Assembly: GCA_028292045.1 (NCBI GenBank)
Contig: JAQGMZ010000159.1
Location: 1-42,985 of the forward strand
DNA: 42,985 nucleotides
Direction of reading: 5' to 3'
Origin: Polaromonas sp.
GTDB lineage: Bacteria; Pseudomonadota; Gammaproteobacteria; Burkholderiales; Burkholderiaceae_C
Each line of letters begins with the position of its first letter. The stretch's first letter is position 1. Positions 10,419 to 25,137 of the stretch are shown here, piece by piece. The notes under the pieces were generated by a model. The model did not search any database. It was given only the letters and a program-made list of their open reading frames with translations, and was not told where the DNA came from. The translations under genes were made by a program, and so were the position numbers.

Positions 10419-10775
10419 ATGCACCAACAACCCCGGGCAAGCATGGCCCTTCTGGTGGCGCTGGCGGGCGCTGCGGCACTGGCGGGCTGCGCCGGCCTGA
10501 CAACCGGCGGCAAGCCGCCGGACGCGTCGTCGGAGCAGGCCTACCGCTGCGCGCAAAACCTGCAATTCACGGTCAGGTTTGCCAACGACACCGCCGTGCT
10601 GAAAGGCGCACGCGGCGACGATGTGCTGCTGCGCGACGCTGGCGGCCAGGGCACGCAGACGGTGTACAGCAACCCGCGGATGCGCGCCGAGTTTGGCCTG
10701 GGCGCCGGCGGCCGCGAAGCGGTGCTGCAGTACCTGCCGCCTGCGCCGCTGGCCGTGCGCTGCCAGCGCGACTGA
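10419..10775 (+). CDS. Small lipoprotein, MliC-like (putative lysozyme inhibitor family)
   Basis: A 118-residue predicted lipoprotein with a short signal peptide ending LAGC (Cys24). The mature part has the layout of the MliC/C-type lysozyme inhibitor fold: AYRC near the start, a VRFAND strand, VLLRDAG, a central RMRAEFGLG, and a closing Cys in AVRCQRD that could pair with the first. Family assignment is by pattern only and is tentative. ATG 10395 overlaps the mltA stop (ATGA), but AAGGAA at 10405-10410 is well spaced for ATG 10419, which also gives a normal signal peptide. Being coupled to mltA, it may act on or protect the cell wall in the periplasm; that role is inference. Confidence 0.72.
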   Translation: MHQQPRASMALLVALAGAAALAGCAGLTTGGKPPDASSEQAYRCAQNLQFTVRFANDTAVLKGARGDDVLLRDAGGQGTQTVYSNPRMRAEFGLGAGGREAVLQYLPPAPLAVRCQRD

Positions 10776-10816
10776 GACGCTGCGTTGCGAACCGGTGGCT
10801 GAAAAGCTTCACGCCG

Positions 10817-10849
10817 TTGTCATTCAACTGCCACGACAGTGTCATAAAA
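10817..10849 (+). promoter_or_regulatory. Pho box (PhoB operator) upstream of phoX
   Basis: Three 7-bp units repeat every 11 bp: TTGTCAT at 10817, CTGCCAC at 10828 and GTGTCAT at 10839, each followed by a 4-bp mostly AT-rich spacer. This matches the PhoB-binding consensus CTGTCAT with 11-bp periodicity. A further CTGTCAC at 10883 lies exactly 44 bp (four repeats) after the third unit, close to the start codon. The box predicts that phoX is activated at phosphate limitation. Confidence 0.78.
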
Positions 10850-10902
10850 ACGCCTTAACGTCACGGGTTGCACAATCTCAACCTGTCACCGAAAGGCCAT
10901 TC

Positions 10903-13158
10903 ATGACCGCTATTTCCCGCCCCGAGCAACTCGCCCTCCAGGCCCATGATGAAGAAAATTGCAACACCAGCGGCAATCCTTCCCTGAACGACATCATCGA
11001 TGCGCGCATGAGCCGCCGCGGCATTTTCAAGGCGGCTTTCGGCACTGCCGGCACGGCCGTGCTGAGCACGGTGAGCCTTGCCGCCTGCGGTGGCGGAGAC
11101 GACACACCGGCGCCCGTCCCGGCCGTTCCCGATCCCCGTGCCACCAGGCTGGGTTTCACCGCCGTTGCCAAAAACAAACTGGACGCCGTGACCGTGGCCG
11201 CCGGCTACACCGCCACCGTCATCTACGCGCTGGGCGACCCGCTGGCCGCCAGCACCCCGGCCTACAAGAACGACGGCACCGACACCGACTTCGACAACCG
11301 CGCCGGCGACCACCATGACGGCATGGAGTACTTCCCGCTGAACGCCGGCGGCACGGCCCGCGACGTCAACGGCAATGAGCGCGGCCTGCTGGTCATGAAC
11401 CATGAAGCGCTGACCGACCAGTTCCTGCATGCCGGCGGCGTGAGCGCCAGGCCCCGGCCTGCCGCCGAGTCGGACAAGGAAGTGCCCGCGCATGGCGTGT
11501 CGGTGGTCGAAGTCCGCAAAAGCGCGGCCGGCAGGTTCGAATACCAGCAGTCTTCAGGCTTCAACCGCCGCATCACGCCGCTCACGCCGATGCAGATCAA
11601 CGGCGCCGCGCGCGGCAACGCCCTGATGAAGACCCGGTACTCGGCCACCGGCACTGACTGCCGCGGCACCATCAACAACTGCGGCACCGGCTACACCCCC
11701 TGGGGCACGTTCCTGACGGGCGAGGAAAACTGGGCCGGTTACTTCACCCGCGCGGCCACCGACGATGCAGCGCGCGGAGGCCCCACGGCCAGCAGCGTGA
11801 TTTCGCTGAACCGCAACGGCCGCGCACAGGGCGCCGCCAGCCGCCACGGCTGGGAAACCTCGGGCACGGACGACAAGTACGCCCGCTGGAACATCAGCCA
11901 GACAGCCCTGGACGCCAGCGGCGACTACCGCAACGAGCTCAACACCTTTGGCTACATGGTTGAAGTCGACCCCTACGACAAGAATGTCGCCATCCGCAAG
12001 CGCACCACGCTCGGCCGCTTCGCCCACGAAAGCGGCGTTTTCGGCAAGGTCAACGCCGGCAAGCCCTTGGCGGTGTACATGGGCGACGACTCGCGCGGCG
12101 AATACATCTACAAGTTCGTCTCCAGCGCCAACTGGTCCGAGGCCGACGCAGCGCCTGCCAACCGCATCACCACGGGCGACAAATACCTGGACAGCGGCAA
12201 GCTGTACGTCGCCAGGTTCAGCGCCGACGGCACGGGCCAGTGGATCGAGCTGAGCATGGCCAACGGCGCGCTGGCCGCCGCCACCAACTACAAGTTTGCC
12301 GACAACGGCGATGTCGCCATGAACAGCCGCCTGGCAGGCGACGCCGTGGGCGCCACGCGCATGGACCGCCCGGAATGGTGCGCCGTCAACCCCGTCAACG
12401 GTGAAATCTATTACACGCTGACCAACAACGCCAACCGCAAGCTCGAGCCAGCCGGCGCCCCATCGGCGCAGCAGGGACTGGACGCGGCCAATCCGCGCTC
12501 CTACCTTGACGCGCCCACCGCGACCACGGCCGCGCAGAACGTCAACGGCCACATCCTGCGGATGCGCGAACTGAACAGCGAGCCGGCCGCCACTGCCTTC
12601 ACCTGGGATGTTTACCTGTTCGGCGCGCAGGCCGATGCCGACCCGTCGCTGGTCAACCTCTCCAGCCTGAGCACCGACCAGGACTTTTCCAGCCCGGACG
12701 GCCTGTGGTTCAGCCCGAAAACCGGCTTATGCTTCATCCAGACCGATGACGGCGCCTACACCGATGTCACCAACTGCATGATGCTGATCGGCCGCCCCGG
12801 CCAGGTCGGCGACGGCACCACGCCGACCTTGAGCTACACCAAGGCCGATGGCTCGAAGGTGGAGGTCAAGACCCGTGTGGGCGCCAAGCCCACGGCAGAC
12901 ACCTTGCGCCGCTTCCTGGTGGGTCCGGTGGACTGCGAGATCACCGGCTGCACCGAGACGCCCGATGGAAAAGCCGTGTTCATCAACATCCAGCACCCGG
13001 GCGAATCCATCAGCAAGGCCAATGTCGCGGACCCCGCCAAGTATTTGAGCCATTGGCCGGCCAATGCCGGTTACGGCGCAGGCGGCGCCAGCACGGCACG
13101 CCCGCGTTCGGCCACCATCGTCGTCACCAAGAACGACGGCGGCCTGATCGGCAGCTAG
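10903..13158 (+). CDS. phoX: PhoX family alkaline phosphatase, Tat-exported
   Basis: A 751-residue PhoX/DUF839 phosphatase, an iron- and calcium-dependent enzyme releasing phosphate from organic phosphoesters outside the cytoplasm. The start ATG 10903 follows a GAAAGG ribosome site at 10891-10896. A twin-arginine signal is present (SRRGIFKAAFG, Arg38-Arg39) after an unusually long 34-residue lead. The hydrophobic stretch ends SLAAC at Cys62, so the protein may also be lipidated. The body contains typical PhoX blocks: DHHDGMEYFPL, RGLLVMNHEA, TGEENWAGYF, RFAHESG, DSRGEYIYKFVS, MDRPEWCAVNP and the final IQHPGE. The frame is open upstream to 10621, but that part overlaps the previous gene and lacks the signal context. 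The Pho box just upstream supports control by PhoB. A strong terminator follows. Confidence 0.92.
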   Translation: MTAISRPEQLALQAHDEENCNTSGNPSLNDIIDARMSRRGIFKAAFGTAGTAVLSTVSLAACGGGDDTPAPVPAVPDPRATRLGFTAVAKNKLDAVTVAAGYTATVIYALGDPLAASTPAYKNDGTDTDFDNRAGDHHDGMEYFPLNAGGTARDVNGNERGLLVMNHEALTDQFLHAGGVSARPRPAAESDKEVPAHGVSVVEVRKSAAGRFEYQQSSGFNRRITPLTPMQINGAARGNALMKTRYSATGTDCRGTINNCGTGYTPWGTFLTGEENWAGYFTRAATDDAARGGPTASSVISLNRNGRAQGAASRHGWETSGTDDKYARWNISQTALDASGDYRNELNTFGYMVEVDPYDKNVAIRKRTTLGRFAHESGVFGKVNAGKPLAVYMGDDSRGEYIYKFVSSANWSEADAAPANRITTGDKYLDSGKLYVARFSADGTGQWIELSMANGALAAATNYKFADNGDVAMNSRLAGDAVGATRMDRPEWCAVNPVNGEIYYTLTNNANRKLEPAGAPSAQQGLDAANPRSYLDAPTATTAAQNVNGHILRMRELNSEPAATAFTWDVYLFGAQADADPSLVNLSSLSTDQDFSSPDGLWFSPKTGLCFIQTDDGAYTDVTNCMMLIGRPGQVGDGTTPTLSYTKADGSKVEVKTRVGAKPTADTLRRFLVGPVDCEITGCTETPDGKAVFINIQHPGESISKANVADPAKYLSHWPANAGYGAGGASTARPRSATIVVTKNDGGLIGS

Positions 13159-13210
13159 GCCATTTGCGCACCCGGCAAAACCAGTAAGTTTTTCCGGGTT
13201 CAGCCACTCG

Positions 13211-13244
13211 CCCGGCCTCCTTGGAGGCCGGGCTTTTTCTTTTT
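13211..13244 (+). terminator. Rho-independent terminator after phoX
   Basis: A perfect 10-bp GC-rich stem (CCCGGCCTCC paired with GGAGGCCGGG, loop TT) at 13211-13232 is followed directly by CTTTTTCTTTTT. It lies 52 bp after the phoX stop and isolates phoX from the downstream secretion locus. Confidence 0.93.
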
Positions 13245-13747
13245 GGGGCGTTATCTCCGCGCCTGCCGGCCCGCTTCGTGATTGCCAGCTCGACCGCAGG
13301 CCATGTTTTTCGGGGAAAGCCTGCTTCAGGCTTATGTACGCGCCATCTGACGCTTGCCGGACAAGTCCTACTTCTTTACAAAACTTTCTGGCGCAGACCA
13401 CTTTTCACATGGCAAAACACATTGTTTTCCTGTCGTCATTTTTCGCTGCGCAACGTCGTCCAAACAAGAAACGTGCTCTGACAGCCGAAGAAAACACGTT
13501 TGCACAATCTCGGGGCCAAACCGTTCAGGCGCCAGAAAACCGCCAGTTTTAGGGTATTCCTGGCGGGGGTTTCCGGCCGCAAACTGACTTCGGGCTTATT
13601 GGCCGACGCTGCAGCATGAAGTCATTTGATTTCAGTCCCTGGCGTCGCTCCGGCGGCCTTGCATCGGGACAGGGGCGGACTTTTTTGATGGGTTCGCTCC
13701 AACCCGACATCCACACGGGGAATCAATGAACAGGGGGGAGAACAGCC
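13245..13747 (+). promoter_or_regulatory. Non-coding leader/promoter region of the type I secretion locus
   Basis: About 500 bp with no convincing gene and visibly lower GC than its surroundings, especially 13360-13520. The short open frames here (60-86 codons) have poor ribosome sites and no recognisable product. A possible sigma-70 promoter is TTGCCG at 13354-13359 with a 17-bp spacer and TACAAA at 13377-13382, which would give a long leader of about 360 nt. Within that leader, CCGCCAG (13540-13546) pairs with CTGGCGG (13560-13566), and a smaller AAAAC/GTTTT stem (13536-13550) overlaps it, so the two hairpins are mutually exclusive. The region ends with GGGGAG at 13735-13740, a good ribosome site for the adhesin ATG at 13748. 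Promoter and structure are inferred from sequence only. Confidence 0.45.
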
Positions 13748-16700
13748 ATGGCACTCATCACACCCAGCTCGAACGTCAAGGTGACGCTTGACGAAACATC
13801 GGGCTTGCAAAACGCATCCGCCACGCCGCTAACTTCGGCGGACGCTGACGACAACGACATCCTCCTCAGCGCGGCGACATTCCCGTCGGTGTTCCAGGTG
13901 CTATCGGCCTTCGGAACCGTCACCAAAACGGCATTGAGCGGCTACACGGGTGCAGCCGGCAACACCGGCAGCAACGCCTTCACGCTCAGCCCCGGCACCG
14001 GCGGCGCCATCACCGATGTGAGCTTTGTCGGCCCGGACGGACAACCGCTCGCCGGGTTGGACAGCGGCCTGCTCACGCTCGACGGCACCAGGATCTTTTT
14101 GTACACCGACACGAACAACAACGTCGTGCTGGGTCGGGTGGGCAATGACGGCGGCACCGCCAGCATCCCCGGCGACGACACCGCCAATGCCTCAGGCGCG
14201 ATCGCGTTTGCCGGGTATATCGAAGAAACCCTGACGGGCACGGCCATCACCGGCGGCAAGATATGGCTCACGCAATACCAGGCGCTCCGGCATCCGGACC
14301 CGGCCGACGCCGACGATTCGGTCAGCCTTCTCAACAAGGTCTTCGTGGGTGTCAGCCAGGACACCGAGTTCAGCCTGGCCGGTGCGCCTTCCGGCCAGAA
14401 CCTGTTCCTCATGTTCAGCAAGGCGAATCCGAATGTCGATGCCAGCGACCGCATCACCGACGTGTCGATCATCGCCACCGGCAAGGATCCGCTGAACCAG
14501 TCCAACGGCGGCAACATCTCCAGCGGCGACACGATCAACACCAGCCAGGCCGGCGGGCCGACGACCTTCGGCACCAACAGCCAGATGATCACCGAGCTGG
14601 AGGGAATCCGCTACACCTTCGTCACGGGCGCCCGGCAGAACGTCACCATTCCCAACCTGGACCAGAACGAAGCGGACGTCGAGGCAAATATCGATTTCAC
14701 GGCCTTTTTTGGCACCCGCACGGCGCAGCTTGACGTGGTGCAGCTGCAAAGCGGCAAAACCGCGCAGGTCCTCCTCACGGCATCGAGTTCGACCTATGCC
14801 AACAGCGCAGGCGATCCCCACCAAAACGAGTCGGGCGCGGGTTTCATCGACGGCTATGCCGACGATGCAACGGTCGCGATCAACAAGGTGAGCGTGACCA
14901 GCACGGCGACCGGTGCGGTGATCGCGTCCGCCACCGGCACCACAACGACACCGAACAACGGCATCGTCTTCACGTTCACGGGTGGAGTTGTCCTGGTCAC
15001 CGGCGTCAAGGCCGGCTACACCATTGAATACACGACGGCCTCGGACCATAACCGCGTGCTTGTCCAGAACGGCGCCGCACTGAACGCCTCAGGCAACACC
15101 CACGCCGACTTCGACATCGGCGGCTTCAAGGTGCTGCAGACCTCGGTGGACAAGATTGAGATCGGCTCGACCATGGTGTTCGAGGATGACGGCCCGAGCG
15201 TCGCGGTCAGCCAAGCGGGCGCCGCCGATGCCGTGGCGGTCGACGAGACCAACCTGGCCCTCAATGCGTCGGCCGACTTTTCAGACAATTACGCCAGCAC
15301 GGCGAGCTACGGGGCCGATGGCGCGGGCACGGTCAGCAGCGTCTATGCGCTGGGCGTCAGCGTCCCGGGCGCCGACTCCGGGCTTGACGACGTCGCCACC
15401 GGCGCCAATGTGCTGCTGTACCTGGACGCGGCTGGCGCGGTCGTCGGCCGTGCCGGCAGTGAAACCGGCGCAATCGTCTTCACCGTCAGCGTCAGCGCCG
15501 CCGGCGTCGTCTCGCTCGATCAGCAGCGGGCGCTGGTCCATCCGAACGCCGGCAACCCGGACGATGCGGTCTCGCCGGTGGGCACCAACCTGATCACGCT
15601 CACGCGCACCGACACCATCACCGACAAGGACGGCGACAGCAACACCGGCGATGCTGCCATTGACATCACCGCCGCGCTGAGCTTCAAGGACGACGGCCCG
15701 GGCGTCAGCGCCAATGCGGCCGTGCAGCTCGACGACGATGCGCTGGCCAACGGCATTGCCGGCGGCACCGACGACGATGCGAACGCAACCAACACCAGCG
15801 GCACGCTCGGCCATGCCTACGGCGCCGACGGCGCGGGTTCGGTGGCCTTGCTCACCACCGCAGCCTTGCCCACGGGTTTCAGCTACGACGCGTTGTCCAC
15901 CTCCACGACCCTGCTGATCAACCAGGGCGTGACCAGGGTGCTGACGGTGACGTTGACCAATGCGGCGACGGGCGCTTATTCGGTGACCCAGAACGCGGCA
16001 ATTCTTCATGCCGCCGGCAGTGACGAAAACAATGCCGTGTTCACCGTCGGCTACCGCGTGACCGACAAGGACGGCGACACCGCGCTCGGCACGCTGGGCA
16101 TCAATGTCGATGACGACACGCCGACGGCCACCGGCACCGCGGCCACCGGCACCGTCGATGAGGACGGCCTGGCCAACGGCATTGCGGGCGGCACGGGCGA
16201 TGCCACAGGCGAAGCGACCACGGTTTCGGGCACGGTCTCCGGCATCTTCCAGTCCGGTGCCGACTCGCCGCTGAGCTACGGCGTGTCGGGCGTGACCACC
16301 GCATTGCCGTCGCTGAGTTCGGGCGGCACGGCGCTGGCGTACAGCGTTCTGGGCAACACGCTCAGCGCCAAGGCCGGCACGGTCCCCGTGTTCACCTTCG
16401 CCATCACCGACACGGCCACCGGCGCCTACACCTTCACGCTGTTCAAGCCGCTGGATCACGCCGCCGGCAACGGCGAGAACGACATCACCATCAACCTGGG
16501 CACCGTGGTGCAGGCCACCGACAAGGACGGCGACACCGTCACCGCCGCAGCCGACAAGGTGGCCATCACGGTGGACGACGATTCGCCGAACCTTGCGTTC
16601 GGCAACCTGGTGGGCACCGGCACCGACCTTGCGCAATATGGCTTCTGGAGCAAGGCTGCGGGCGCCGATGGGCCGAACGCCGACGACCTGCAGGTCACAC

Positions 16701-17941
16701 TGACCGGGTTCCAGCTCGGCGGCGTTGCCCAGGCCGCGGCGAACTTCTCGCTCACCGAGCAGGCGCCTTCACCCGACGCCAATGGAAGCTACAACTTCAG
16801 CGGCTCGCTCAAGGGCGACTTCGACAACAACGCCGCGACAGCCGATACGACCGTCAGCTTCACGCTCGCCGCGCTGGCGAACGGGAAGTACGCGCTCGAC
16901 CTTGCGGCGCCGATTACTTCGTCAACGACCACCGACACGGCCAGCGGCGCGCTGGGGGCCGGGGGGCCTGACCCGGTGCAGACGCTGTTCATTCCTTCCA
17001 CGGCGGCCAGCCCGGCGGAGACCGTTGTCTTCTTTTCGGCGAAAGTGGGCGCCACGGTTGCCGACATCGCGGCGGGCATCATCCAGGGCCAGGCCGATCC
17101 CACGGAAGCGAGCCTGCAGGGGCCGCCGTTGGCGTCATTCATCGACCCCCAGAACATGAACGTCAGCACGTCAGGCATCGGCGTGGCCAACAATGTCCTT
17201 GAGGGCGATGCCAATGCGGCCATTGGCGGCGCTGGCAGCACCGACGAAAGCTTTGTCGTCAATCCGGGCGCCCTGGTCAACACGGTGCGCGTGTTCGTCG
17301 ACAACTCGGTCAGCGGCTACAAGTACACGCCCGGGCCCGGAAGCGGCGGCAATGAGCGGCTGTACTACACAGCCTATTACTCGGACGGAGGCAATTCGGG
17401 CCCTGTTCTTGTCAACTATGACATCAACACGGGCGCCGGGACGCCCAAGTTCTTCGAGGTCGGCGGGGGGACCCGGCTGATCGACGCGGTGCAGCTGACA
17501 ATGGCCAGGGGCGATGTCAAGATCCCGAACATCCAGTTCGTGACCACGACGGAGAGCCTTGCCAAGGACATCGGCCTGGACTTCACCGCATCGCTGACCG
17601 ACTGGGACGGCGACACCGTGTCGAGCGCTTTCTCAGCCGACCTTTTCACGAACAAGGCCGCCACTGCAACCTTCGACTACGAACTGCTCGGGAGCCTGCT
17701 TGCGAAAGACGCCTTTGACATCGATCTGCAGTCCGTGCGCAACGACTACAGGATCACCGGCTTCGACACCACGAGCGGCGCCCGCGACCAGATCGTGCTG
17801 CTCGGAGACGCCAATGCTGTGGTCGGCAGCATCGACAACAGCAGCGCCGACAGCATCGTGACGATCACCGAAAGCTTGCAGGCCACGACCCTCACGGTGA
17901 TCGGGGTCGATCTGCTGGCGGCCGACATTGTTTTTGCCTGA
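13748..17941 (+). CDS. Large type I secreted repeat protein (DUF5801 / T1SS-143-repeat adhesin-like)
   Basis: A 1397-residue acidic, Thr/Ala/Asp-rich protein without a Sec signal. The N-terminus (VTLDETSGLQN, residues ~10-22) and the blocks ending FEDDGPSV (478), FKDDGPGV (646), VDDDTP (787) and VDDDSP (942) mark DUF5801-like / T1SS-143 repeats with a period of about 140-170 residues. TDKDGD recurs at residues 625, 772 and 924, with a divergent TDWDGDT at 1284. The last ~60 residues (DQIVLLGD ... TLTVIGVDLLAADIVFA) resemble C-terminal type I secretion regions. No GGxGxDxxx nonapeptides are present, which is unusual for RTX-type substrates. The adjacent ABC-ABC-HlyD-TolC genes indicate ABC-dependent export directly to the surface. 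It is probably an adhesin or surface-layer/biofilm protein, but the function is not proved. Ribosome site GGGGAG is 7 bp before ATG. Confidence 0.87.
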   Translation: MALITPSSNVKVTLDETSGLQNASATPLTSADADDNDILLSAATFPSVFQVLSAFGTVTKTALSGYTGAAGNTGSNAFTLSPGTGGAITDVSFVGPDGQPLAGLDSGLLTLDGTRIFLYTDTNNNVVLGRVGNDGGTASIPGDDTANASGAIAFAGYIEETLTGTAITGGKIWLTQYQALRHPDPADADDSVSLLNKVFVGVSQDTEFSLAGAPSGQNLFLMFSKANPNVDASDRITDVSIIATGKDPLNQSNGGNISSGDTINTSQAGGPTTFGTNSQMITELEGIRYTFVTGARQNVTIPNLDQNEADVEANIDFTAFFGTRTAQLDVVQLQSGKTAQVLLTASSSTYANSAGDPHQNESGAGFIDGYADDATVAINKVSVTSTATGAVIASATGTTTTPNNGIVFTFTGGVVLVTGVKAGYTIEYTTASDHNRVLVQNGAALNASGNTHADFDIGGFKVLQTSVDKIEIGSTMVFEDDGPSVAVSQAGAADAVAVDETNLALNASADFSDNYASTASYGADGAGTVSSVYALGVSVPGADSGLDDVATGANVLLYLDAAGAVVGRAGSETGAIVFTVSVSAAGVVSLDQQRALVHPNAGNPDDAVSPVGTNLITLTRTDTITDKDGDSNTGDAAIDITAALSFKDDGPGVSANAAVQLDDDALANGIAGGTDDDANATNTSGTLGHAYGADGAGSVALLTTAALPTGFSYDALSTSTTLLINQGVTRVLTVTLTNAATGAYSVTQNAAILHAAGSDENNAVFTVGYRVTDKDGDTALGTLGINVDDDTPTATGTAATGTVDEDGLANGIAGGTGDATGEATTVSGTVSGIFQSGADSPLSYGVSGVTTALPSLSSGGTALAYSVLGNTLSAKAGTVPVFTFAITDTATGAYTFTLFKPLDHAAGNGENDITINLGTVVQATDKDGDTVTAAADKVAITVDDDSPNLAFGNLVGTGTDLAQYGFWSKAAGADGPNADDLQVTLTGFQLGGVAQAAANFSLTEQAPSPDANGSYNFSGSLKGDFDNNAATADTTVSFTLAALANGKYALDLAAPITSSTTTDTASGALGAGGPDPVQTLFIPSTAASPAETVVFFSAKVGATVADIAAGIIQGQADPTEASLQGPPLASFIDPQNMNVSTSGIGVANNVLEGDANAAIGGAGSTDESFVVNPGALVNTVRVFVDNSVSGYKYTPGPGSGGNERLYYTAYYSDGGNSGPVLVNYDINTGAGTPKFFEVGGGTRLIDAVQLTMARGDVKIPNIQFVTTTESLAKDIGLDFTASLTDWDGDTVSSAFSADLFTNKAATATFDYELLGSLLAKDAFDIDLQSVRNDYRITGFDTTSGARDQIVLLGDANAVVGSIDNSSADSIVTITESLQATTLTVIGVDLLAADIVFA
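15620..16536 (+). repeat. Tandem ~150-codon repeats within the secreted protein gene
   Basis: The 19-bp string encoding TDKDGD recurs identically at 15620, 16061 and 16517, giving spacings of 441 and 456 bp (147 and 152 codons). A second shared string encoding LANGIAGG occurs at 15743 and 16169. Identity at DNA level between otherwise diverged units marks possible sites of unit gain or loss by recombination. Confidence 0.75.
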
Positions 17942-17967
17942 ACCGGCCATGCGCCCTGCGGCGAGGC

Positions 17968-17991
17968 AAGGGCGGCTTGAAAACCGCCCTT
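17968..17991 (+). other. Intergenic hairpin between secreted protein and export genes
   Basis: AAGGGCGG at 17968-17975 pairs with CCGCCCTT at 17984-17991 around an 8-nt loop, 27 bp after the adhesin stop. No T-tract follows, so it is not a standard terminator. It might damp read-through or protect the 3' end of the adhesin message, separating high substrate expression from lower exporter expression; this is inference. The remainder of the 207-bp gap shows no gene. Confidence 0.45.
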
Positions 17992-18148
17992 GAGTAACCC
18001 CCGGCGCAGTCAGCCGGCCATCGGCCGCTGCCGCACATCCGAAGCGCCTGTTTGGGGTCCGGCCATGGACGGCACCAGTCTATTCGTCTGGTCAGCTCCC
18101 CACCGCCGGCCGGCCTGGCAAGCGGGCTTTGCCACCTGGAAAAATTGA

Positions 18149-19894
18149 ATGCAGAACAACAAGACAACTTCCGAATTGCGGCAAGCGGTGATGGCGCTTC
18201 GCCCCTATTTCTTGCGCGCGGCCTGGTTCAGCCTGTGCGCCAGCCTGCTGGTGCTGGCGCCGAGCGGCTACATGCTGGAGGTGTACGGGCGGGTTGTCGA
18301 CAGCCGCAGCCACCTGACCCTGGCCATGCTGACCTTGCTGGTGCTGGCGGCTTACTGCCTGATGGAGGTGCTGGAGTGGGCGCGGGCGGAGATCATGTGC
18401 CGGGCGGGGCAGGAACTGGACCGAAAGTTGCGCAACCGCGTGTTTGGCGCCATGTTCGCATCCGGCCTGCGGCGAATGCCCGGCGCCAGCGCACAGCCGC
18501 TCACCGACTTTCGGATAATTCGGGAATTTTTGTATTCGCCGCCCCTGCTGGCCTTGATGGAAGCGCCTGTGTCGCTGGTTTTTCTGGCGCTGATGTTTGC
18601 CATCAGCCCGGTGCTGGGCTGGTCGGCCGTGGCGGGCTCGGTGGCGCAGGTGCTGGTGGGCTGGCTGAACGAGAAAAATACCCAGCCGCCCCTGGTGGCG
18701 GCCAATCGCTGTTCCATGGCCGCGCAGCACTATGTGCAGGGCTGCCTGCGAAATGCCCAGGTGATCGAGTCCATGGGCATGCTGCGCAACGTTCGCCGCC
18801 GCTGGATGGGCAAGCAGCGCGAATTTTTGGAACTGCAGGCGCTGGCGTCCGACCGCGCCGGGGCATACCAGGCCCTGACCAAGTTCTTGCAGCTGGCCAT
18901 GGGTTCGCTGCTGCTGGGCCTGGGCGCCTGGCTGCTGTTGAACAACCGGCTCAACGGCGGCGCCGGCATGATGATCGTGGGCTCCATCCTGGGCGGCCGG
19001 GTGCTGGCGCCGCTGGTCCAGCTTGTGACGCAGTGGCGCCTGGTGATCCATGCGCGCGATGCCTGGGACCGCCTGGAAAGCCTCTTGGGCGCCATTGCGC
19101 CCAAGCCGGACAAGATGGCGCTGCCGCCGCCGAAAGGCCTGGTGCAGGTCGAAAGCCTGGTCGCGGGCCCGCCGGGCGGCGGCCCCGCCATTCTGAAGAA
19201 TGTGGCGTTCAGCCTGGCGCCCGGCGAGGTGCTTGCCGTGGCGGGGCCTTCGGCCTCGGGCAAGACGACGCTGGCGCGCCTGATGGTCGGCCTGTGGCCG
19301 GCGGCCAGCGGCAAGGTGCGGCTGGACGGGGCGGACATGCATACCTGGGACAAAAGCGAGCTGGGCCCGCATATCGGCTACCTTGCGCAGGACGTGGAAT
19401 TGCTGGAGGGCACTGTGGCCGAAAACATTGCGCGCTTCGGCGAGGTCCGGCCCGCCAAGGTCAAGGCGGCCGCGCTGGCCGTCGACCTGCATGCTTTCAT
19501 CATGGGCCTTCCGCTGGGGTATGACAGCCCGGTCGGGCGCGAGGGCGGCATGCTGTCGGGCGGCCAGCGCCAACGCATCGGGCTGGCGCGCGCCCTCTAC
19601 GGGGAACCCGTGCTGGTGGTGCTGGATGAGCCGAATTCAAGCCTTGACGAGGCGGGCGACGCCGCGCTGGCGTCTGCTATCTTGGACCTCAAATCGCGCG
19701 GCACCACTTTTGTCGTGATGACGCACCGCACCAGCGTGCTGGCCGTGGCTGACAAACTGCTGGTGCTGAGCGACGGTGTGATGCAGGCCTTCGGCCCCCG
19801 GGACGAAGTGCTGGCCGCCCTGAACAAAGCCAGCGCGCAGGCGGCTGCCCAGGCGCGCCACACCCAGGGCGCCGCCGTGGCGGAAGCGGCCTGA
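18149..19894 (+). CDS. Type I secretion ABC transporter, PrtD family (first of two)
   Basis: A 581-residue fused membrane/ATPase half-transporter of the PrtD/LipB class, without an N-terminal C39 peptidase or peptidase-like domain. About 5-6 membrane segments occupy residues ~20-290. The ATPase domain has Walker A GPSASGKTT at 366, signature LSGGQ at 469, Walker B VVLDEP with Asp493-Glu494, and switch His526. It would energise export of the upstream repeat protein across the inner membrane together with the HlyD and TolC proteins. ATG 18149 follows GGAAAA, 207 bp after the adhesin. The C-terminus carries an Ala/Gln-rich tail. All catalytic motifs are intact, so it is not a decayed copy of its neighbour. 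Confidence 0.92.
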   Translation: MQNNKTTSELRQAVMALRPYFLRAAWFSLCASLLVLAPSGYMLEVYGRVVDSRSHLTLAMLTLLVLAAYCLMEVLEWARAEIMCRAGQELDRKLRNRVFGAMFASGLRRMPGASAQPLTDFRIIREFLYSPPLLALMEAPVSLVFLALMFAISPVLGWSAVAGSVAQVLVGWLNEKNTQPPLVAANRCSMAAQHYVQGCLRNAQVIESMGMLRNVRRRWMGKQREFLELQALASDRAGAYQALTKFLQLAMGSLLLGLGAWLLLNNRLNGGAGMMIVGSILGGRVLAPLVQLVTQWRLVIHARDAWDRLESLLGAIAPKPDKMALPPPKGLVQVESLVAGPPGGGPAILKNVAFSLAPGEVLAVAGPSASGKTTLARLMVGLWPAASGKVRLDGADMHTWDKSELGPHIGYLAQDVELLEGTVAENIARFGEVRPAKVKAAALAVDLHAFIMGLPLGYDSPVGREGGMLSGGQRQRIGLARALYGEPVLVVLDEPNSSLDEAGDAALASAILDLKSRGTTFVVMTHRTSVLAVADKLLVLSDGVMQAFGPRDEVLAALNKASAQAAAQARHTQGAAVAEAA

Positions 19895-19919
19895 CTGGCC
19901 CATGTCCGGAAAGATGCCC

Positions 19920-21644
19920 ATGGAACAAGCTCATTTTTTCAAGCGCAGCGAACTGGCGGCCAGCCTGTGGGCCTTCCGGCAGGAATTTCTGGTGGTGGGC
20001 TTGCTGAGTTTTCTGACGAACTTGCTCATGCTGGCCCCAACCCTCTACATGCTGCAGCTGTTTGACCGGGTGCTCGCCAGCCAGAGCGGGCTGACGCTTC
20101 TGGCGGTGTCGCTGATCACCTTGTTCCTCTTCGGGGTGCTGGCCTTGTCCGAATGGCTGCGCTCGCGGGTGCTGGTCAGGGCGGGTTTGCGTTTTGACCG
20201 GCAGCTCAGTACGCGGGTGTTCAATGCAAGTTTCCAGGCTTGCCTGGGCACGCCCGGGCCTACCCCCTCGCGGGCCTTCGCCGACCTGATCCTGGTCCGC
20301 CAGTTCCTGACCGGCAGCGGCGTGTTTGCGCTCTTTGACGCGCCGTGGGCGCCCATCTACATCGCCGTGACTTTTTTCCTGCACCCCTGGCTGGGCGTCT
20401 TGTCGCTGGTGTTTGTCGTGGTCCAGGCCGCGCTGGCCTGGTTTGGGCACCGCCGCACCGTCGCACCGTCGGAAGAGGCCACCAAGGCCGGCAGTGAAAT
20501 GACCGGCGACCTGCAGGGCAAGCTGCGGATCGCGGAAGTGCTCGAGGCCATGGGCATGATCGGCCATCTGCAAGAACGCTGGAACCGGCAGCATGCGGAC
20601 TGGATGCGCAAGAGCGCCCTTGCGCAAGGCAGCACGCACCGCATCACGGCCTGGAGCAAATTCATTCGCTACAGCCAGCAGTCGCTGGCGCTGGGCGCGG
20701 GCGCCCTGCTGGTGATCGACGGGCAACTCTCGCCGGGGGCCATGATTGCCGCGAATGTGCTGATGGCGCGCGCGCTTGCGCCTATCGACCAGCTGGCCGG
20801 CACCTGGCGCGGCTTTGTCACCAGCCGCGCCGCCTTTGGACGCCTGGAAAGGCTGCTTGAGGAATTTCCCGCGCACGACCCGGCCCTTTCCCGGGCCGGC
20901 CCCACCGGCGCCGTCAGCCTGCAGGGCGTGGTGGCCAGCGTTGCCCGGCGAGCCGACCCCATCCTGAAAAATATCTCGTTTTCGGTGCCGGCGGGCACCG
21001 TGGTGGCGGTGCTCGGCCCTTCGGGCTCGGGCAAGTCCACCCTGGCCCGGGTCATGCTGGGCATCTGGCCGGAACTGGCGGGCGCGGTGCTGCTGGACGG
21101 GCTGCCGGTCGGGGGCTGGAACCGGCCCGACCTGGGCCCCCATCTGGGCTACCTGCCGCAAGACGTTGAACTGTTTGAAGGCACCATCGCCGAGAACATT
21201 GCGCGGCTCGGCGAGGTGGACCCGTCCAAGGTCATCGAGGCGGCCCGCAGCGCGGGGATGCACGAGATGATCCTGCGCTTTCCCAAAGGCTACGACACGC
21301 CCATCGGCGAGGCCGGCAACCTGCTTTCCGGCGGTCAGCGCCAACGCCTGGGACTGGCCCGCGCGATCTACGGCGACCCCTGCCTGGTGGTGCTGGATGA
21401 GCCCAATGCCAATCTGGACGATGCCGGGGAAGCTGCGCTGCTGGGAGCCATTCGCGAGCTCAAGGCCAAAGGAAAAACCGTGTTTGTGGTGACGCACCGC
21501 CCCGGCGCCATGGCCGTGGCGGACCGGCTCATGGTGCTGCGGGACGGCTGGCTGGTGGCCGACGGGCCCCGGGACGCCGTGCTGGCCACTTTGCTGCGCC
21601 CCCGGCCTGCTGCGCCGGCGAAGGTCTTTACGCAGCCTGCCTGA
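19920..21644 (+). CDS. Type I secretion ABC transporter, PrtD family (second of two)
   Basis: A second PrtD-type half-transporter of 574 residues. With the start at ATG 19920 (GGAAAG six bases upstream), Walker A (GPSGSGKST, 366), LSGGQ (469), Walker B Asp493 and switch His526 fall at exactly the same residue numbers as in the preceding protein, showing paralogy. ATG 19902 is an alternative start adding six residues but lacks a ribosome site. The membrane part has several segments between about 20 and 290. It starts 25 bp after the first ABC gene, so both are probably made together. A heterodimeric exporter is one reading; two homodimers serving different substrates is another. Motifs in both are complete, so no degenerate ATP site is visible. 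Confidence 0.92.
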   Translation: MEQAHFFKRSELAASLWAFRQEFLVVGLLSFLTNLLMLAPTLYMLQLFDRVLASQSGLTLLAVSLITLFLFGVLALSEWLRSRVLVRAGLRFDRQLSTRVFNASFQACLGTPGPTPSRAFADLILVRQFLTGSGVFALFDAPWAPIYIAVTFFLHPWLGVLSLVFVVVQAALAWFGHRRTVAPSEEATKAGSEMTGDLQGKLRIAEVLEAMGMIGHLQERWNRQHADWMRKSALAQGSTHRITAWSKFIRYSQQSLALGAGALLVIDGQLSPGAMIAANVLMARALAPIDQLAGTWRGFVTSRAAFGRLERLLEEFPAHDPALSRAGPTGAVSLQGVVASVARRADPILKNISFSVPAGTVVAVLGPSGSGKSTLARVMLGIWPELAGAVLLDGLPVGGWNRPDLGPHLGYLPQDVELFEGTIAENIARLGEVDPSKVIEAARSAGMHEMILRFPKGYDTPIGEAGNLLSGGQRQRLGLARAIYGDPCLVVLDEPNANLDDAGEAALLGAIRELKAKGKTVFVVTHRPGAMAVADRLMVLRDGWLVADGPRDAVLATLLRPRPAAPAKVFTQPA

Positions 21645-21700
21645 GCCTGGGGCCGCACAACCTCTTCATCCCTCCATTCATCAACCAACCAGAGCGAGAC

Positions 21701-23062
21701 ATGGCCAAATCCGGTTTTCTCAAAGGCGTGACTTCCACCCCTGCGCTGCCGGTGGAGGAAGAACCTGCGGCGGACGAAAGTCCGGGCCTGGGCCGCGCCG
21801 GGCGCATCGGCCTGTGGGCGCTGGCCTTCGGCTTTGGCGGGTTTTTGCTCTGGGCCGCGCTGGCCCCGCTGGACGAGGGCGTGCCCAGCCAGGGCCATGT
21901 CGCGATCGACACCAAGCGCAAGACGGTCCAGCACCTGAGCGGGGGCATTGTCAAAGAAGTGCTGGTGGGCGAGGGCAGCCAGGTCCGGGAAGGCCAGCTG
22001 CTGCTCAGGCTCGACGATGCTGCGGCCAGGGCGAACTTCGAGGCCGTGCGGCAGCGCTACCTGGGGTTTCGCGCCATGCAGGGCCGCTTGCAGGCCGAGC
22101 AGGCCGGCCAGGGCGCCATCGACTTCCATTCGGATCTGCAGGCGGCTGCGGTCGACCCGCTGATCCGGCAGCAAATGGTGAACCAGGAGCAGTTGCTGCA
22201 GTCGCGCCGCTCGGCCTTGCGCGCTGACCTGCAGTCCATGGAGGAAACCATCCGGGGCCAGCAAGGGCTGTCGCAGGCTTACGCGGGCATGCTGGGCAGC
22301 CGGCGAAGCCAGCTTGCGCTGCTCAAGGAGGAGCTGGGCCATACCCGCGGCCTGGTCAGCGAAGGTTATGCCCCGCGCAATCGCCAGCTGGAGCTGGAGC
22401 GCCAGGTGGCTGACTCGAACGCGTCCATTGCCGAACTGGTGGGCAGCACGGTCAGGGCGCAGCGGACGGTCATGGAGCTTCGCCAGCGGGCCATTGCCAG
22501 GCAGCAGGAGTACCGCAAGGAAATTGAAACGCAGCAGGCGGAGGTCAGCCGCGAAGTGCTGGGAGACGCCGAGAAATTTCGCGCCTTGCGGGACGATCTG
22601 GGCCGCACCGAGATCCGGTCGCCTGCTTCGGGCCAGGTGGTGGCGCTGGCGGCGCAGACCGTTGGCGGCGTGATCGGCCCCGGACAAAAACTGATGGATG
22701 TGGTGCCCGCCAACGAGTCGCTGATGCTGGAAACCAGGGTGCAGCCGCACCTGATCGACCGCGTGCATGCGGGCATGCCGGTGGATGTGCGTTTCTCGTC
22801 CTTTGCCCATTCCCCGCAACTGGTGGTGCCGGGCCAGCTGGTGTCGGTGTCCGGCGACCTGTTGACCGACCCGCAGGACAACGCGAGCTACTACCTGGCG
22901 CGGGTGGCCGTGACGCGCGAAGGGCTGAAAAAGCTGGGCAGGCATGCGATGCAGCCTGGCATGCCGGTCGAGGTGGTTTTCAAAACGGGAGAGCGTTCGC
23001 TGCTGACCTATCTTCTGCATCCGCTCACCAAGCGCATTGCAGCCGCGATGAAAGAGGAGTGA
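21701..23062 (+). CDS. HlyD/PrtE family periplasmic adaptor of type I secretion
   Basis: A 453-residue membrane fusion protein. It has a short cytoplasmic N-terminus, one membrane helix at about residues 31-55 (IGLWALAFGFGGFLLWAAL), then APLDEGV and a lipoyl/barrel half-motif (VQHLSGGIVKEVLVGEGSQVREGQ). A long alpha-helical coiled-coil hairpin spans roughly 100-295, with the second barrel half at IRSPASGQVVAL. The C-terminal block VVPANESLMLETRVQPHLIDRVHAGMPVDVRFSSF is typical of the family. It bridges the ABC transporters and the TolC channel. ATG 21701 is 56 bp after the second ABC gene; the TolC gene begins 4 bp after its stop. Confidence 0.94.
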   Translation: MAKSGFLKGVTSTPALPVEEEPAADESPGLGRAGRIGLWALAFGFGGFLLWAALAPLDEGVPSQGHVAIDTKRKTVQHLSGGIVKEVLVGEGSQVREGQLLLRLDDAAARANFEAVRQRYLGFRAMQGRLQAEQAGQGAIDFHSDLQAAAVDPLIRQQMVNQEQLLQSRRSALRADLQSMEETIRGQQGLSQAYAGMLGSRRSQLALLKEELGHTRGLVSEGYAPRNRQLELERQVADSNASIAELVGSTVRAQRTVMELRQRAIARQQEYRKEIETQQAEVSREVLGDAEKFRALRDDLGRTEIRSPASGQVVALAAQTVGGVIGPGQKLMDVVPANESLMLETRVQPHLIDRVHAGMPVDVRFSSFAHSPQLVVPGQLVSVSGDLLTDPQDNASYYLARVAVTREGLKKLGRHAMQPGMPVEVVFKTGERSLLTYLLHPLTKRIAAAMKEE

Positions 23063-23066
23063 GGCG

Positions 23067-24428
23067 ATGCGAAAAAGCGCCGCCCCCACGGTTTCTTTGT
23101 TGCCGCTGGCCAGGGCGGGCGCATTGGCGATGGCGCTGGCCGGCGCGCCGGCCTGGCCGCTTGACCTGTCGCAAGCCTACCAGGCGGCCCTTGAACAGGA
23201 CGCGACGATCCGGGCGGTGCGCGCAGCCACAGACGCCCGGCGCGAGCGCCTGCCGCAGGCCCGCTCGCAACTGCTGCCCAGCCTGTCGGCCAGTGCCTCG
23301 CGCTACCGCAACTCGCTGGAGCGGACCGCACCTGATTTCTTCGGCCGGCCGGTCACGTCCGACGAACGCTACACCAGCAGCAGCGAGACCCTGACCGTGC
23401 GGCAACCCCTTTTTCGCAAGGCCCTGATGGCCGACTACCGGCAGGCGCAGGCGCAGGTTGACGATGCCAACGCCATCCTGGAGCGGGAGCTGCAAAGCGT
23501 CGCGGTCCGGGTCAGCGGCGCTTATTTCGAGGCTCTGCTGGCCCAGGAGCAGCTGGCCCTGATCCTTGCCCAAAAAACGGCTTACACCACCCAGCTCGAT
23601 GCAGCCGAAAAGCGCTTTCGCGCCGGCGCCGGGACGCGCACCGACATCGATGAGGCACGCGCGGCCCTGGACCTCAATGTGGCGAAGGAGCTGGAGGCGC
23701 GCCAGAGCCTGGACCTGGCCCACAGGCAGCTGCAAAGCCTGATCAATCGGCCTGTCGGGCAGCTGGCGCCGCTGGACGCGCTCAAGATGCAGCTGCTCCA
23801 GCCTGCGCCCCCCCGGATGGAGGACTGGCTGGAGCGCGCCGAGATCAGCAGCCCCGAGGTCCGGTCGTACACCGCGCAGGTGGAAGTGGCGCGCCAGGAA
23901 CTGGGCAAGGCGCGGGCGGGCCATTACCCGACCCTGGACGCCATTGCCCAGTGGTCGCGCAGCGACAGCGATACCGTCACCGCCGTCAAAAACCGCTACA
24001 CCAACAAATCCATCGGCCTGCAACTCAATGTTCCCCTGTTTTCAGGCGGCTATGCGGGCTCTGCCGTGCGGCAGGCCGCGGCCGCTCAAGAGCAGGCGCA
24101 AGAGGCGCTCGAAGCGTTGCGCCGCGACCTCGGGGTGCGCTTGCACCGCGAGTTTCGCGGGGTGACGGAGGGCGTGCTGCGGATCAAGGCCCTTGAACAG
24201 GCAGTGCGTTCAGCCGAGCAGGTGGTGCTCTCGAACCGCCGCTCGTTCGAGGCGGGTAGCCGTACCTTGCCTGACCTGCTCAATGCGGAGCAGCTGAAGG
24301 TCGCGGCCCAGCGTGACCTGGCGCAGGCGCGTTTTGTCTACCTGATTTCCCGCGTGCGGCTCCATGCGCTCGCGGGCGGGCCCAAAGCCGAGGTCATCGA
24401 CGAGGTCAACGGCTGGCTGGCGCGCTGA
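23067..24428 (+). CDS. TolC family outer-membrane channel of type I secretion
   Basis: A 453-residue outer-membrane efflux protein. A signal peptide (MRKSAAPTVSLLPLARAGALAMALAGAPAWP) precedes DLSQAYQAALEQDATIRA, the usual start of the first OEP repeat. Two OEP halves follow, with the conserved ISRVRLHALAG near the C-terminus. It forms the outer-membrane duct for the upstream ABC/HlyD exporter, and its position 4 bp after the HlyD gene supports a dedicated, locus-specific TolC. It converges with the Lrp-type gene; the 37-bp gap holds a small CCCGG/CCGGG hairpin (24447-24461) without a T-tract, so a terminator is not certain. Confidence 0.93.
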   Translation: MRKSAAPTVSLLPLARAGALAMALAGAPAWPLDLSQAYQAALEQDATIRAVRAATDARRERLPQARSQLLPSLSASASRYRNSLERTAPDFFGRPVTSDERYTSSSETLTVRQPLFRKALMADYRQAQAQVDDANAILERELQSVAVRVSGAYFEALLAQEQLALILAQKTAYTTQLDAAEKRFRAGAGTRTDIDEARAALDLNVAKELEARQSLDLAHRQLQSLINRPVGQLAPLDALKMQLLQPAPPRMEDWLERAEISSPEVRSYTAQVEVARQELGKARAGHYPTLDAIAQWSRSDSDTVTAVKNRYTNKSIGLQLNVPLFSGGYAGSAVRQAAAAQEQAQEALEALRRDLGVRLHREFRGVTEGVLRIKALEQAVRSAEQVVLSNRRSFEAGSRTLPDLLNAEQLKVAAQRDLAQARFVYLISRVRLHALAGGPKAEVIDEVNGWLAR

Positions 24429-24465
24429 AGCAAGCAAGCGGAACCGCCCGGAGCCGCCGGGAGCC

Positions 24466-24960
24466 TCAGGCGGCAGGCTGCGCCAGGTGCCCCAGCGGCA
24501 GCGCCCCGCTGGCCTTCACCTCGCCCAGCGAAAAGCTGGTGTGCAGGTCCTTCACGTTCGGCAGGTTGATCAGCACGTCGCGGGCGAACTGGCTGAAGCT
24601 GTTCAGGTCGCGGCTGACCACCTGCAACTCGAAAGTGCCGGTGCCGCTGATGTAGTGGCAGCTCACCACCTCGGGAATGGTGCGGATGGCTTCTTCAAGC
24701 GCGTGCAGCACGTCCCCGCTGTTGCGCGCCGCGTCCAGCCGCACGAAAGCCAGCACGCCCAGGCCGATCTTGTGGCGGTTGATCTCGGCGCGGTAGCCGG
24801 TGATGAAGCCGCTTTCCTCCAGCGCCCGCACGCGCCGCCAGCAGGGCGCGGCCGACAGGCCCACGCGCGAGGCCAGTTCGGTGTTGGTCAGCCGCGCGTC
24901 CACCTGCAACTCGTTCAGGATGGCGAGGTCGAATTTGTCCAATGTTTCCATTTTTGGCAT
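24466..24960 (-). CDS. Lrp/AsnC family transcriptional regulator
   Basis: A 164-residue regulator. The N-terminal winged helix (LDKFDLAILNELQVDARLTNTELASRVGLSAAPCWRRVRALEESG) is followed by a RAM/AsnC effector-binding domain (IGLGVLAFVRLD ... TGTFELQVVSRDLNSFSQFARDVL). ATG 24960 is taken as start; ATG 24951 (METLDKF) is equally plausible and matches the usual family beginning. No strong ribosome site is visible. It diverges from the indolepyruvate oxidoreductase gene, the classic position for a local regulator of amino-acid catabolism, and a palindrome lies directly upstream of its start. The effector is probably an aromatic or branched-chain amino acid, by inference from the neighbour. Confidence 0.93.
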   Translation of the reverse strand: MPKMETLDKFDLAILNELQVDARLTNTELASRVGLSAAPCWRRVRALEESGFITGYRAEINRHKIGLGVLAFVRLDAARNSGDVLHALEEAIRTIPEVVSCHYISGTGTFELQVVSRDLNSFSQFARDVLINLPNVKDLHTSFSLGEVKASGALPLGHLAQPAA

Positions 24961-24961
24961 T

Positions 24962-24984
24962 TTGCAGCAAGAATCTTGCGCCAA
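24962..24984. promoter_or_regulatory. Palindromic operator candidate for the Lrp-type regulator
   Basis: GCAAGA and TCTTGC form a perfect 13-bp palindrome around one central base (24967-24979), extended by TTG and CAA at symmetric positions (24962-24964 and 24982-24984). It sits immediately before the regulator's start, next to an AT-rich CTATAG element, so it could serve autoregulation and control of the divergent gene. A weak promoter for the divergent gene may be AAGACA (25011) with a 17-bp spacer and TACACT (25034). Confidence 0.6.
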
Positions 24985-25137
24985 CTATAGTAAATGGGGC
25001 AAAAAAAGCAAAGACATATCCCGGTGCGCGGCATACACTTTTGGCTGAAGTCAAAGCGCGGGCCCGATCGGTCCTGACGCTGGCGAAACCGCCTGCCCAC
25101 AAGGCGGGTCATGACCATCCTGCTGGAGACAAACACC

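What the first reader, a model, noticed from the sequence alone, without database searches (positions are those of the whole stretch)
13748..24428. Type I secretion cassette with two consecutive complete PrtD-type ABC genes
One substrate gene is followed by two ABC half-transporters, an adaptor and a TolC. In both ABC proteins Walker A, LSGGQ, Walker B and the switch His fall at the same residue numbers (366, 469, 493, 526 with start 19920), so they are paralogues that have both kept ATPase motifs. Known type I systems normally use one homodimeric ABC protein. A heterodimeric exporter, or two homodimers for different substrates, would be a departure from the textbook arrangement.
Basis: partly seen in the sequence, partly recalled or inferred. 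Interest (0 to 1): 0.72.

Follow-up and report, generated by a model that had tools for sequence, protein, structure and literature searches.

The report
Two-pump version of type I secretion
This bacterial protein-export cassette carries two different, consistently paired motor proteins where such exporters normally have one, and in many relatives the same gene cluster also carries half of a transposon's RNA-guided enzyme, so it is probably a distinct two-motor branch of a known secretion machine.

Summary
Window 13748-24428 holds a DUF5801/T1SS-143 repeat protein, two complete PrtD-type ABC genes (ABC1 18149-19894, ABC2 19902-21644; 43% identical), an HlyD and a TolC. ABC1 and ABC2 are two old clades, met as an adjacent pair in many betaproteobacteria and in Chlorobiaceae. 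In 399 order-level genomes all 14 ABC1-type genes (the window's included) adjoin an ABC2-type gene; the one unpaired ABC2 of 15 is at a contig end. Seven of nine tested ATPase positions are kept in 56 of 56 ABC1 and 55 of 55 ABC2, the other two in all but one. Their distances co-vary at r = 0.96, against 0.70-0.84 with HlyD or TolC. I favour an ABC1-ABC2 heterodimer with two active ATP sites; contact is inferred, not shown. There is a precedent: RtxB/RtxE of MARTX systems. Unexpectedly, 32 of 51 judged pair loci encode, just upstream of ABC1, a ~200-residue TnpB N-terminal half without RuvC. The window and its two judged subclade mates lack it and have the repeat-protein gene there instead.

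The parts
13748..17941 (+). Probable secreted substrate, 1397 aa: DUF5801 (4 stretches) / T1SS-143 (2 stretches) repeat domains, no RTX (HemolysinCabind) match; N-terminal ~480 aa shared with the gene in the same place in L086 and L095
   Evidence: export itself not shown
18149..19894 (+). ABC1, PrtD-type permease/ATPase, 581 aa, no C39/CLD-type N-terminal domain
   Evidence: TIGR01842 633 bits; clade ABC1; ATPase residues present
19902..21644 (+). ABC2, PrtD-type permease/ATPase, 580 aa, starts 7 bases after the ABC1 stop codon (alternative ATG at 19920)
   Evidence: TIGR01842 665 bits; clade ABC2; ATPase residues present
21701..23062 (+). HlyD-family periplasmic adaptor, 453 aa
   Evidence: TIGR01843 362 bits, cut-off 209
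23067..24428 (+). TolC-family outer-membrane channel, 453 aa
   Evidence: TIGR01844 296 bits, cut-off 225
17942..18148 (+). Spacer where 32 of 51 judged pair loci carry the TnpB-N gene; none in this window
   Evidence: tblastn of 14 TnpB-N proteins against the whole window at E 1e-5: none; own genome at E 0.01: none (genome 81% complete)

Best explanation
A type I secretion system of the PrtD kind in which the inner-membrane pump is made of two specialised half-transporters, ABC1 and ABC2, most likely as an obligate heterodimer with two working ATP sites, docked to one HlyD-type adaptor and one TolC-type channel. In this genome its cargo is most likely the DUF5801/T1SS-143 repeat protein encoded just upstream, exported in one step from cytoplasm to outside by an uncleaved C-terminal signal. 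Shown: gene identities, orthology, co-inheritance, ATPase motifs kept in both clades, equal constraint, co-divergence. Inferred: physical ABC1-ABC2 contact, need for both, the identity of the cargo and its export.
For: Separate clades, 100% SH-aLRT each, with largely matching inner branching. In 399 order-level genomes 14 of 14 ABC1-type genes adjoin an ABC2-type gene and 14 of 15 ABC2-type adjoin ABC1, the 15th lying at a contig end. In the scan of named genomes (capped at the best 80 loci) 27 of 28 ABC1-type loci have ABC2 next, the 28th ending there, while the other 52 show one such ABC gene in the stretch fetched. In 54 of 54 pairs the order is ABC1 then ABC2, in 19 of them with a 4-base overlap. 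ABC1-ABC2 distance correlation 0.961 on the 26 loci common to all genes, against 0.70-0.84 for ABC with HlyD or TolC; median distance ratio 0.98, and dN/dS 0.176 and 0.177 against the nearest relative. Walker A Lys and Ser/Thr, Q-loop Gln, Walker B Asp and Glu, D-loop Asp and switch His kept in 56 of 56 ABC1 and 55 of 55 ABC2. A clade difference in TM1, Glu44 in ABC1 (94%) against Gln52 in ABC2 (100%) and Gln in 67 of 70 single PrtDs, aligns beside residues M43 and Y47 of A. aeolicus PrtD, named as part of a gasket ring in a PMC8277102 passage.
Against: No interface was modelled or measured. Co-inheritance and co-divergence would also follow if the two formed separate homodimers inside one adaptor ring. 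Neither ATP site is degenerate, the usual mark of heterodimeric ABC exporters (recalled). Cargo-like neighbours differ between relatives and the gene next door need not be the cargo; single-ABC loci of Pseudomonas also lie near similar repeat proteins. The correlation comparison is affected by protein length and by exchange of HlyD/TolC genes: HlyD and TolC also correlate with each other at 0.84.
Confidence: 0.6

Rival explanations
1. Mixed ring: ABC1 and ABC2 each form homodimers, but both kinds sit in the same HlyD ring as one machine.
For: PDB entries 8dck and 7sgr list six HlyB chains each, so one assembly can hold more than one dimer (that these are three dimers in one adaptor ring is recalled). 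Both proteins keep seven of nine tested ATPase positions in every member and the other two in all but one. Explains co-inheritance with one adaptor equally well.
Against: Does not explain why the two ABC proteins co-vary more with each other than with HlyD.
Confidence: 0.2
2. Two independent homodimeric exporters for two different substrates that share one adaptor and channel.
For: Both ATPases look active; genes beside the cassette vary: RTX proteins, a metalloprotease-like protein, an alkaline-phosphatase fusion, DUF5801 proteins.
Against: Independent exporters should sometimes be lost separately; no unpaired ABC1- or ABC2-type gene was found away from a contig end.
Confidence: 0.12
3. Plain redundancy: two PrtD genes side by side, of no special meaning.
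For: Both are recognisable, intact PrtD proteins.
Against: The pairing is older than the spread through several family groups and Chlorobiaceae; both copies are under equal purifying selection.
Confidence: 0.05

Closest known systems
PrtDEF / AprDEF / LipBCD-type type I secretion (TIGR01842 subfamily; A. aeolicus PrtD 5L22, S. marcescens LipB NBD 5X7K)
   Same: Each ABC protein is a full PrtD homologue without C39/CLD domain; HlyD and TolC partners of the matching subfamilies.
   Different: Two co-inherited ABC clades per cassette instead of one ABC gene.
MARTX atypical type I secretion, RtxB-RtxD-RtxE plus TolC
   Same: Two ABC genes, separate clades, suspected heterodimer, one adaptor (PMC3034196 and PMC4316617, passages).
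   Different: RtxB is described as an HlyB analogue, in transporter Group 2, with ABC genes flanking the adaptor; here both are PrtD type and adjacent, so an independent origin is likely. RtxB/RtxE sequences were not compared here.
PrtD of Candidatus Liberibacter asiaticus
   Same: A published suggestion that a PrtD may partner another ABC half (PMC3688454, passages).
   Different: There the reason was a deteriorated Walker C motif in a lone PrtD; here both proteins keep theirs and are encoded together.
Heterodimeric ABC exporters with one degenerate ATP site (TM287/288, BmrCD, TmrAB)
   Same: Two paralogous half-transporters working as a pair (named in a PMC8277102 passage).
   Different: No degenerate site in either clade; protein-exporter family.

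Membership tests
Type I secretion system (T1SS) | ABC protein + HlyD-type adaptor + TolC-type channel in one cassette | tested here: met
   NCBIfam TIGR01842, TIGR01843, TIGR01844 all over curated cut-off
Type I secretion system (T1SS) | Exports a substrate by a C-terminal uncleaved signal | not testable with these tools
   Substrate class fits (DUF5801, T1SS-143); export needs an assay
PrtD protein subfamily TIGR01842 (each ABC protein) | Score over cut-off, no N-terminal C39/CLD domain | tested here: met
   633 and 665 bits against 510; alignment starts at residues 15 and 24 and covers the model; HlyB and LssB models stay below their cut-offs
Canonical one-ABC PrtDEF system | One ABC gene per cassette | tested here: not met
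   Adjacent pair, conserved
Canonical one-ABC PrtDEF system | ABC protein works as a homodimer | not tested
   Oligomer state was neither modelled nor measured
MARTX-type atypical T1SS | Two co-inherited ABC clades | tested here: met
MARTX-type atypical T1SS | HlyB-type (Group 2) ABC proteins and a MARTX toxin | tested here: not met
   PrtD-type (HlyB model 218 and 272 bits against cut-off 726); neighbour is a DUF5801 protein
Heterodimeric exporter with degenerate site | One nucleotide-binding site lacks catalytic residues | tested here: not met
   Seven of nine tested positions invariant in both clades; signature Ser in 55 of 56 ABC1, signature Gly in 54 of 55 ABC2. ABC1's Walker A Ala is shared with 34 of 70 single PrtDs and LipB
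TnpB (small gene of relatives, not in the window) | N-terminal WED/REC half | tested here: met
   Profile A1 finds transposon-type TnpB genes; predicted fold matches TnpB/Cas12f at moderate TM-score, 0.41-0.62; the domain names are recalled
TnpB (small gene of relatives, not in the window) | RuvC nuclease domain and zinc ribbon | tested here: not met
   About 200 aa in most members; ABC1 begins at or near its stop codon

The most novel reading that the evidence does not exclude
A PrtD-type branch of type I secretion evolved, independently of MARTX, an obligate heterodimeric protein pump with two active ATP sites, and its operon recruited a nuclease-less half of the transposon enzyme TnpB as a dedicated nucleic-acid-binding part, for instance one that controls or couples synthesis of cargo encoded elsewhere. 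The window's own subclade then dropped the TnpB half when a repeat-protein gene took its place in the operon.
Probability: 0.35. Interest if true: 0.85.

Novelty: new variant of a known kind. Interest (0 to 1): 0.62.

Why it matters
If right, pairing of two ABC halves in type I secretion arose at least twice, in the HlyB and the PrtD lines, which would say that asymmetry is useful for pushing unfolded protein and would give a small, CLD-free system in which to study it. The linked TnpB half would be an exaptation of the N-terminal part of an RNA-guided nuclease without its nuclease, beside the TldR regulators (that those are near full length is recalled). Eight literature searches listed, by title and start of abstract, no report of a PrtD-type pair or of a TnpB half in a secretion operon; passages were seen of four papers only, and the library lacks most subscription journals.

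Tried and rejected
Recent tandem duplication: rejected by two deep clades. Whether the pair arose by duplication at all is open: in that tree the ABC2 clade groups with ten single PrtDs and ABC1 with two others, each at 88%, so two different PrtDs may have been brought together. Degenerate ATP site in ABC1 (Ala in Walker A): rejected, Ala is common in single PrtDs and present in LipB. MARTX kinship: disfavoured by family models. Plasmid carriage of the pair: a protein search of 72,556 plasmid records (E 1e-80) gave 271 records, all under 60% identity, best listed 45.9%. An RTX cargo in the window: no RTX match. Structure between substrate gene and ABC1: the spacer folds no better than shuffles, z -0.29. 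Sigma-70 promoters: none found in 13150-25200, 0.8 expected by chance. A linked ABC1-ABC2 fusion was considered for folding and not made, since it would not tell hetero- from homodimer.

Results against my reading and limits: HlyD and TolC correlate with ABC2 up to 0.84, so part of the signal is shared history. Most of loci L038-L054 and L058-L069 were fetched because they were tandem, so only searches count as tests of pairing. In some searches the tool scored three candidates per genome, so a fourth PrtD gene would be missed, and nine of the 14 pairs (the window's and eight others) supplied rows of the two profiles. Genome G393 shows a further adjacent, more divergent pair (C7:82444-85889) that I did not count. 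TnpB-N presence needs 7 changes on the pair tree, so it is no fixed partner; the PDB fold matches have moderate TM-scores and 8-15% identity. Rows left out: L061 has no ABC1 in reach; L098 and L072 have no complete ABC2 (contig ends); L043, L050, L101, L105, L161 could not be judged for TnpB-N. In L086 the HlyD lies in two ORFs. Trees are quick searches with SH-aLRT support only.

Full report
What is there. The finding's coordinates hold five plus-strand genes: a 1397-residue repeat protein (13748-17941), ABC1 (18149-19894), ABC2 (19902-21644), an HlyD adaptor (21701-23062) and a TolC channel (23067-24428). The repeat protein has DUF5801 domains (4 stretches) and T1SS-143 repeats (2 stretches) but no RTX match. 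Both ABC proteins pass the PrtD-type family cut-off, and HlyD and TolC pass theirs. ABC1 and ABC2 are 43% identical. The best PDB sequence match for both is full-length A. aeolicus PrtD, 5l22. The window lies in a 3.3-Mb draft genome, 81% complete. Its genus is taken to be Polaromonas: a same-genus genome (G084) has a contig of the same length as the named Polaromonas record L084, and another (G042) one of the same length as the Polaromonas sp. JS666 plasmid.

Is the pair real and old. Among 149 related genomes 17, the window's included, carry an adjacent PrtD pair by the coordinates. I fetched pairs and single PrtD genes. In the fetched pairs with both genes in reach, the first gene is an ABC1 orthologue and the second an ABC2 orthologue. 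A tree of 79 proteins puts all 30 ABC2 in one clade and all 29 ABC1, plus one divergent pair member (L072), in another, both at 100% support, with largely matching inner branching. As a test of pairing I searched 399 genomes of the order with profiles of each clade. Fourteen genes, the window's included, are ABC1-type (at least 218 bits better with the ABC1 profile where both scores are listed) and all 14 adjoin an ABC2-type gene. Fifteen are ABC2-type; the one without a neighbour (G263) lies at a contig end. Single PrtD genes score within about 50 bits with both. Nine of the 14 pairs had supplied rows to the profiles. A pattern scan of named genomes, capped, gave 80 loci: 28 ABC1-type, of which 27 have ABC2 next and one (L098) ends there; the other 52 show one such ABC gene in the stretch fetched. 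Record titles among the 28 include Polaromonas, Acidovorax, Variovorax, Rhodoferax, Malikia, Herminiimonas, Thauera, Accumulibacter and five Chlorobiaceae.

Do both work. Walker A Lys and Ser/Thr, Q-loop Gln, Walker B Asp and Glu, D-loop Asp and switch His are kept in 56 of 56 ABC1 and 55 of 55 ABC2; the signature Ser in 55 of 56 and 55 of 55, and the signature Gly in 56 of 56 and 54 of 55. Against the nearest relative dN/dS is 0.176 for ABC1 and 0.177 for ABC2. So neither is a decaying copy and neither clade is a degenerate half-site. Three positions are at least 90% fixed to different residues in the two clades; the one of interest is Glu44 in ABC1 (94%) against Gln52 in ABC2 (100%) and Gln in 67 of 70 single PrtDs. 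By the alignments it corresponds to residue 45 of A. aeolicus PrtD, between M43 and Y47, which a review names as part of a gasket ring (PMC8277102, passages only). This is a hint of asymmetry in the path, no more.

Do they act together. On the 26 loci where all genes could be compared, pairwise distances correlate at 0.961 for ABC1-ABC2, 0.90 for ABC-TnpB-N, and 0.70-0.84 for ABC with HlyD or TolC. With the co-inheritance, and one HlyD gene beside most pairs, the simplest reading is one machine needing both, most likely as a heterodimer. A ring holding both kinds of homodimer is the main rival.

What it exports. The window's repeat protein has relatives in the same place in Herminiimonas (L086, 41% over 830 columns) and Variovorax Root411 (L095, 45% over 869), the N-terminal ~480 residues included. 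In a tree of ABC1 and ABC2 placed end to end these two, the window and its nearest relative L050 (upstream not visible) form one 100%-supported clade. Elsewhere neighbours of the cassette are RTX proteins (L054, L058, L066), a metalloprotease-like protein with weak serralysin similarity (L091), and an alkaline-phosphatase fusion with RTX in Chlorobaculum (L100). Four single-ABC loci of Pseudomonas also lie near proteins similar to the window's (L123, L127, L134, L152), so the cargo class alone does not need two ABC genes.

The unexpected partner. In 32 of 51 judged pair loci a gene just upstream of ABC1, same strand, encodes a protein of about 200 residues that the window lacks (5 more loci could not be judged). 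Six of these proteins tested against Pfam gave no match over a cut-off, four against NCBIfam gave none, and a profile of eight found no PDB sequence. That profile finds seven near-identical TnpB-type genes in genome G108; one was checked and has OrfB_IS605 and Cas12f1-like TNB domains; only the N-terminal half aligns. The predicted fold (mean pLDDT 89) has its 29 best PDB matches all in TnpB or Cas12f/k/n, at moderate TM-score. dN/dS in seven pairs is 0.05-0.33. In 148 relatives one search found 13 such genes in 12 genomes, all directly before ABC1 (coordinates), besides weaker matches in longer TnpB-like frames. It was not found in the window's genome (81% complete). So a RuvC-less TnpB half is a frequent but not universal member of this secretion operon, missing in the window and its two judged subclade mates, where a substrate-type gene stands in its place. 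Its role is unknown; a regulator or RNA-binding part is my guess.

Against the known. Two-ABC type I secretion is not new: MARTX systems need RtxB and RtxE, which form separate clades and were suggested to be a heterodimer (PMC3034196 and PMC4316617, passages). PMC4316617 contrasts these Group 2 transporters with an Apr-like Rickettsiales system that has one ABC. A partnership of a PrtD with another ABC half was also floated for Liberibacter (PMC3688454, passages). The window's pair is PrtD type, so it looks like a parallel case in the other line. Hence: new variant of a known kind, with an unusual linked gene in many relatives.

Noticed in passing
L042:7156-7761, L048:8894-9499 (-), L087:5899-6501 and 29 further pair loci: RuvC-less TnpB N-terminal half encoded directly upstream of ABC1, often overlapping it by 4 bases; under purifying selection; no family model tested covers it.
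   Followed up: yes
L072:1-3694 (G044): Divergent member of the ABC1 clade in the order HlyD-ABC1-(partial ABC2-like) at a contig end.
   Followed up: partly
G393:C7:82444-85889: Another adjacent, more divergent PrtD pair seen; not fetched.
   Followed up: no
L100:1414-6246: Chlorobaculum two-ABC locus with a 1611-residue choice-of-anchor I / alkaline phosphatase / RTX protein directly upstream.
   Followed up: partly
L042:5199-7067: CHASE2-adenylate/guanylate cyclase gene next to the TnpB-N/ABC cassette; a similar-looking gene, not scanned, lies beside it in L044.
   Followed up: no
window 13210-13233: Terminator-like hairpin (10 pairs, T-rich tail) between the upstream ORF 10621-13158 and the substrate gene; the scan as a whole found 9 such sites against 10.7 expected.
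   Followed up: no
L046 and L047 (G073): One genome carries two pair loci, each with TnpB-N.
   Followed up: no
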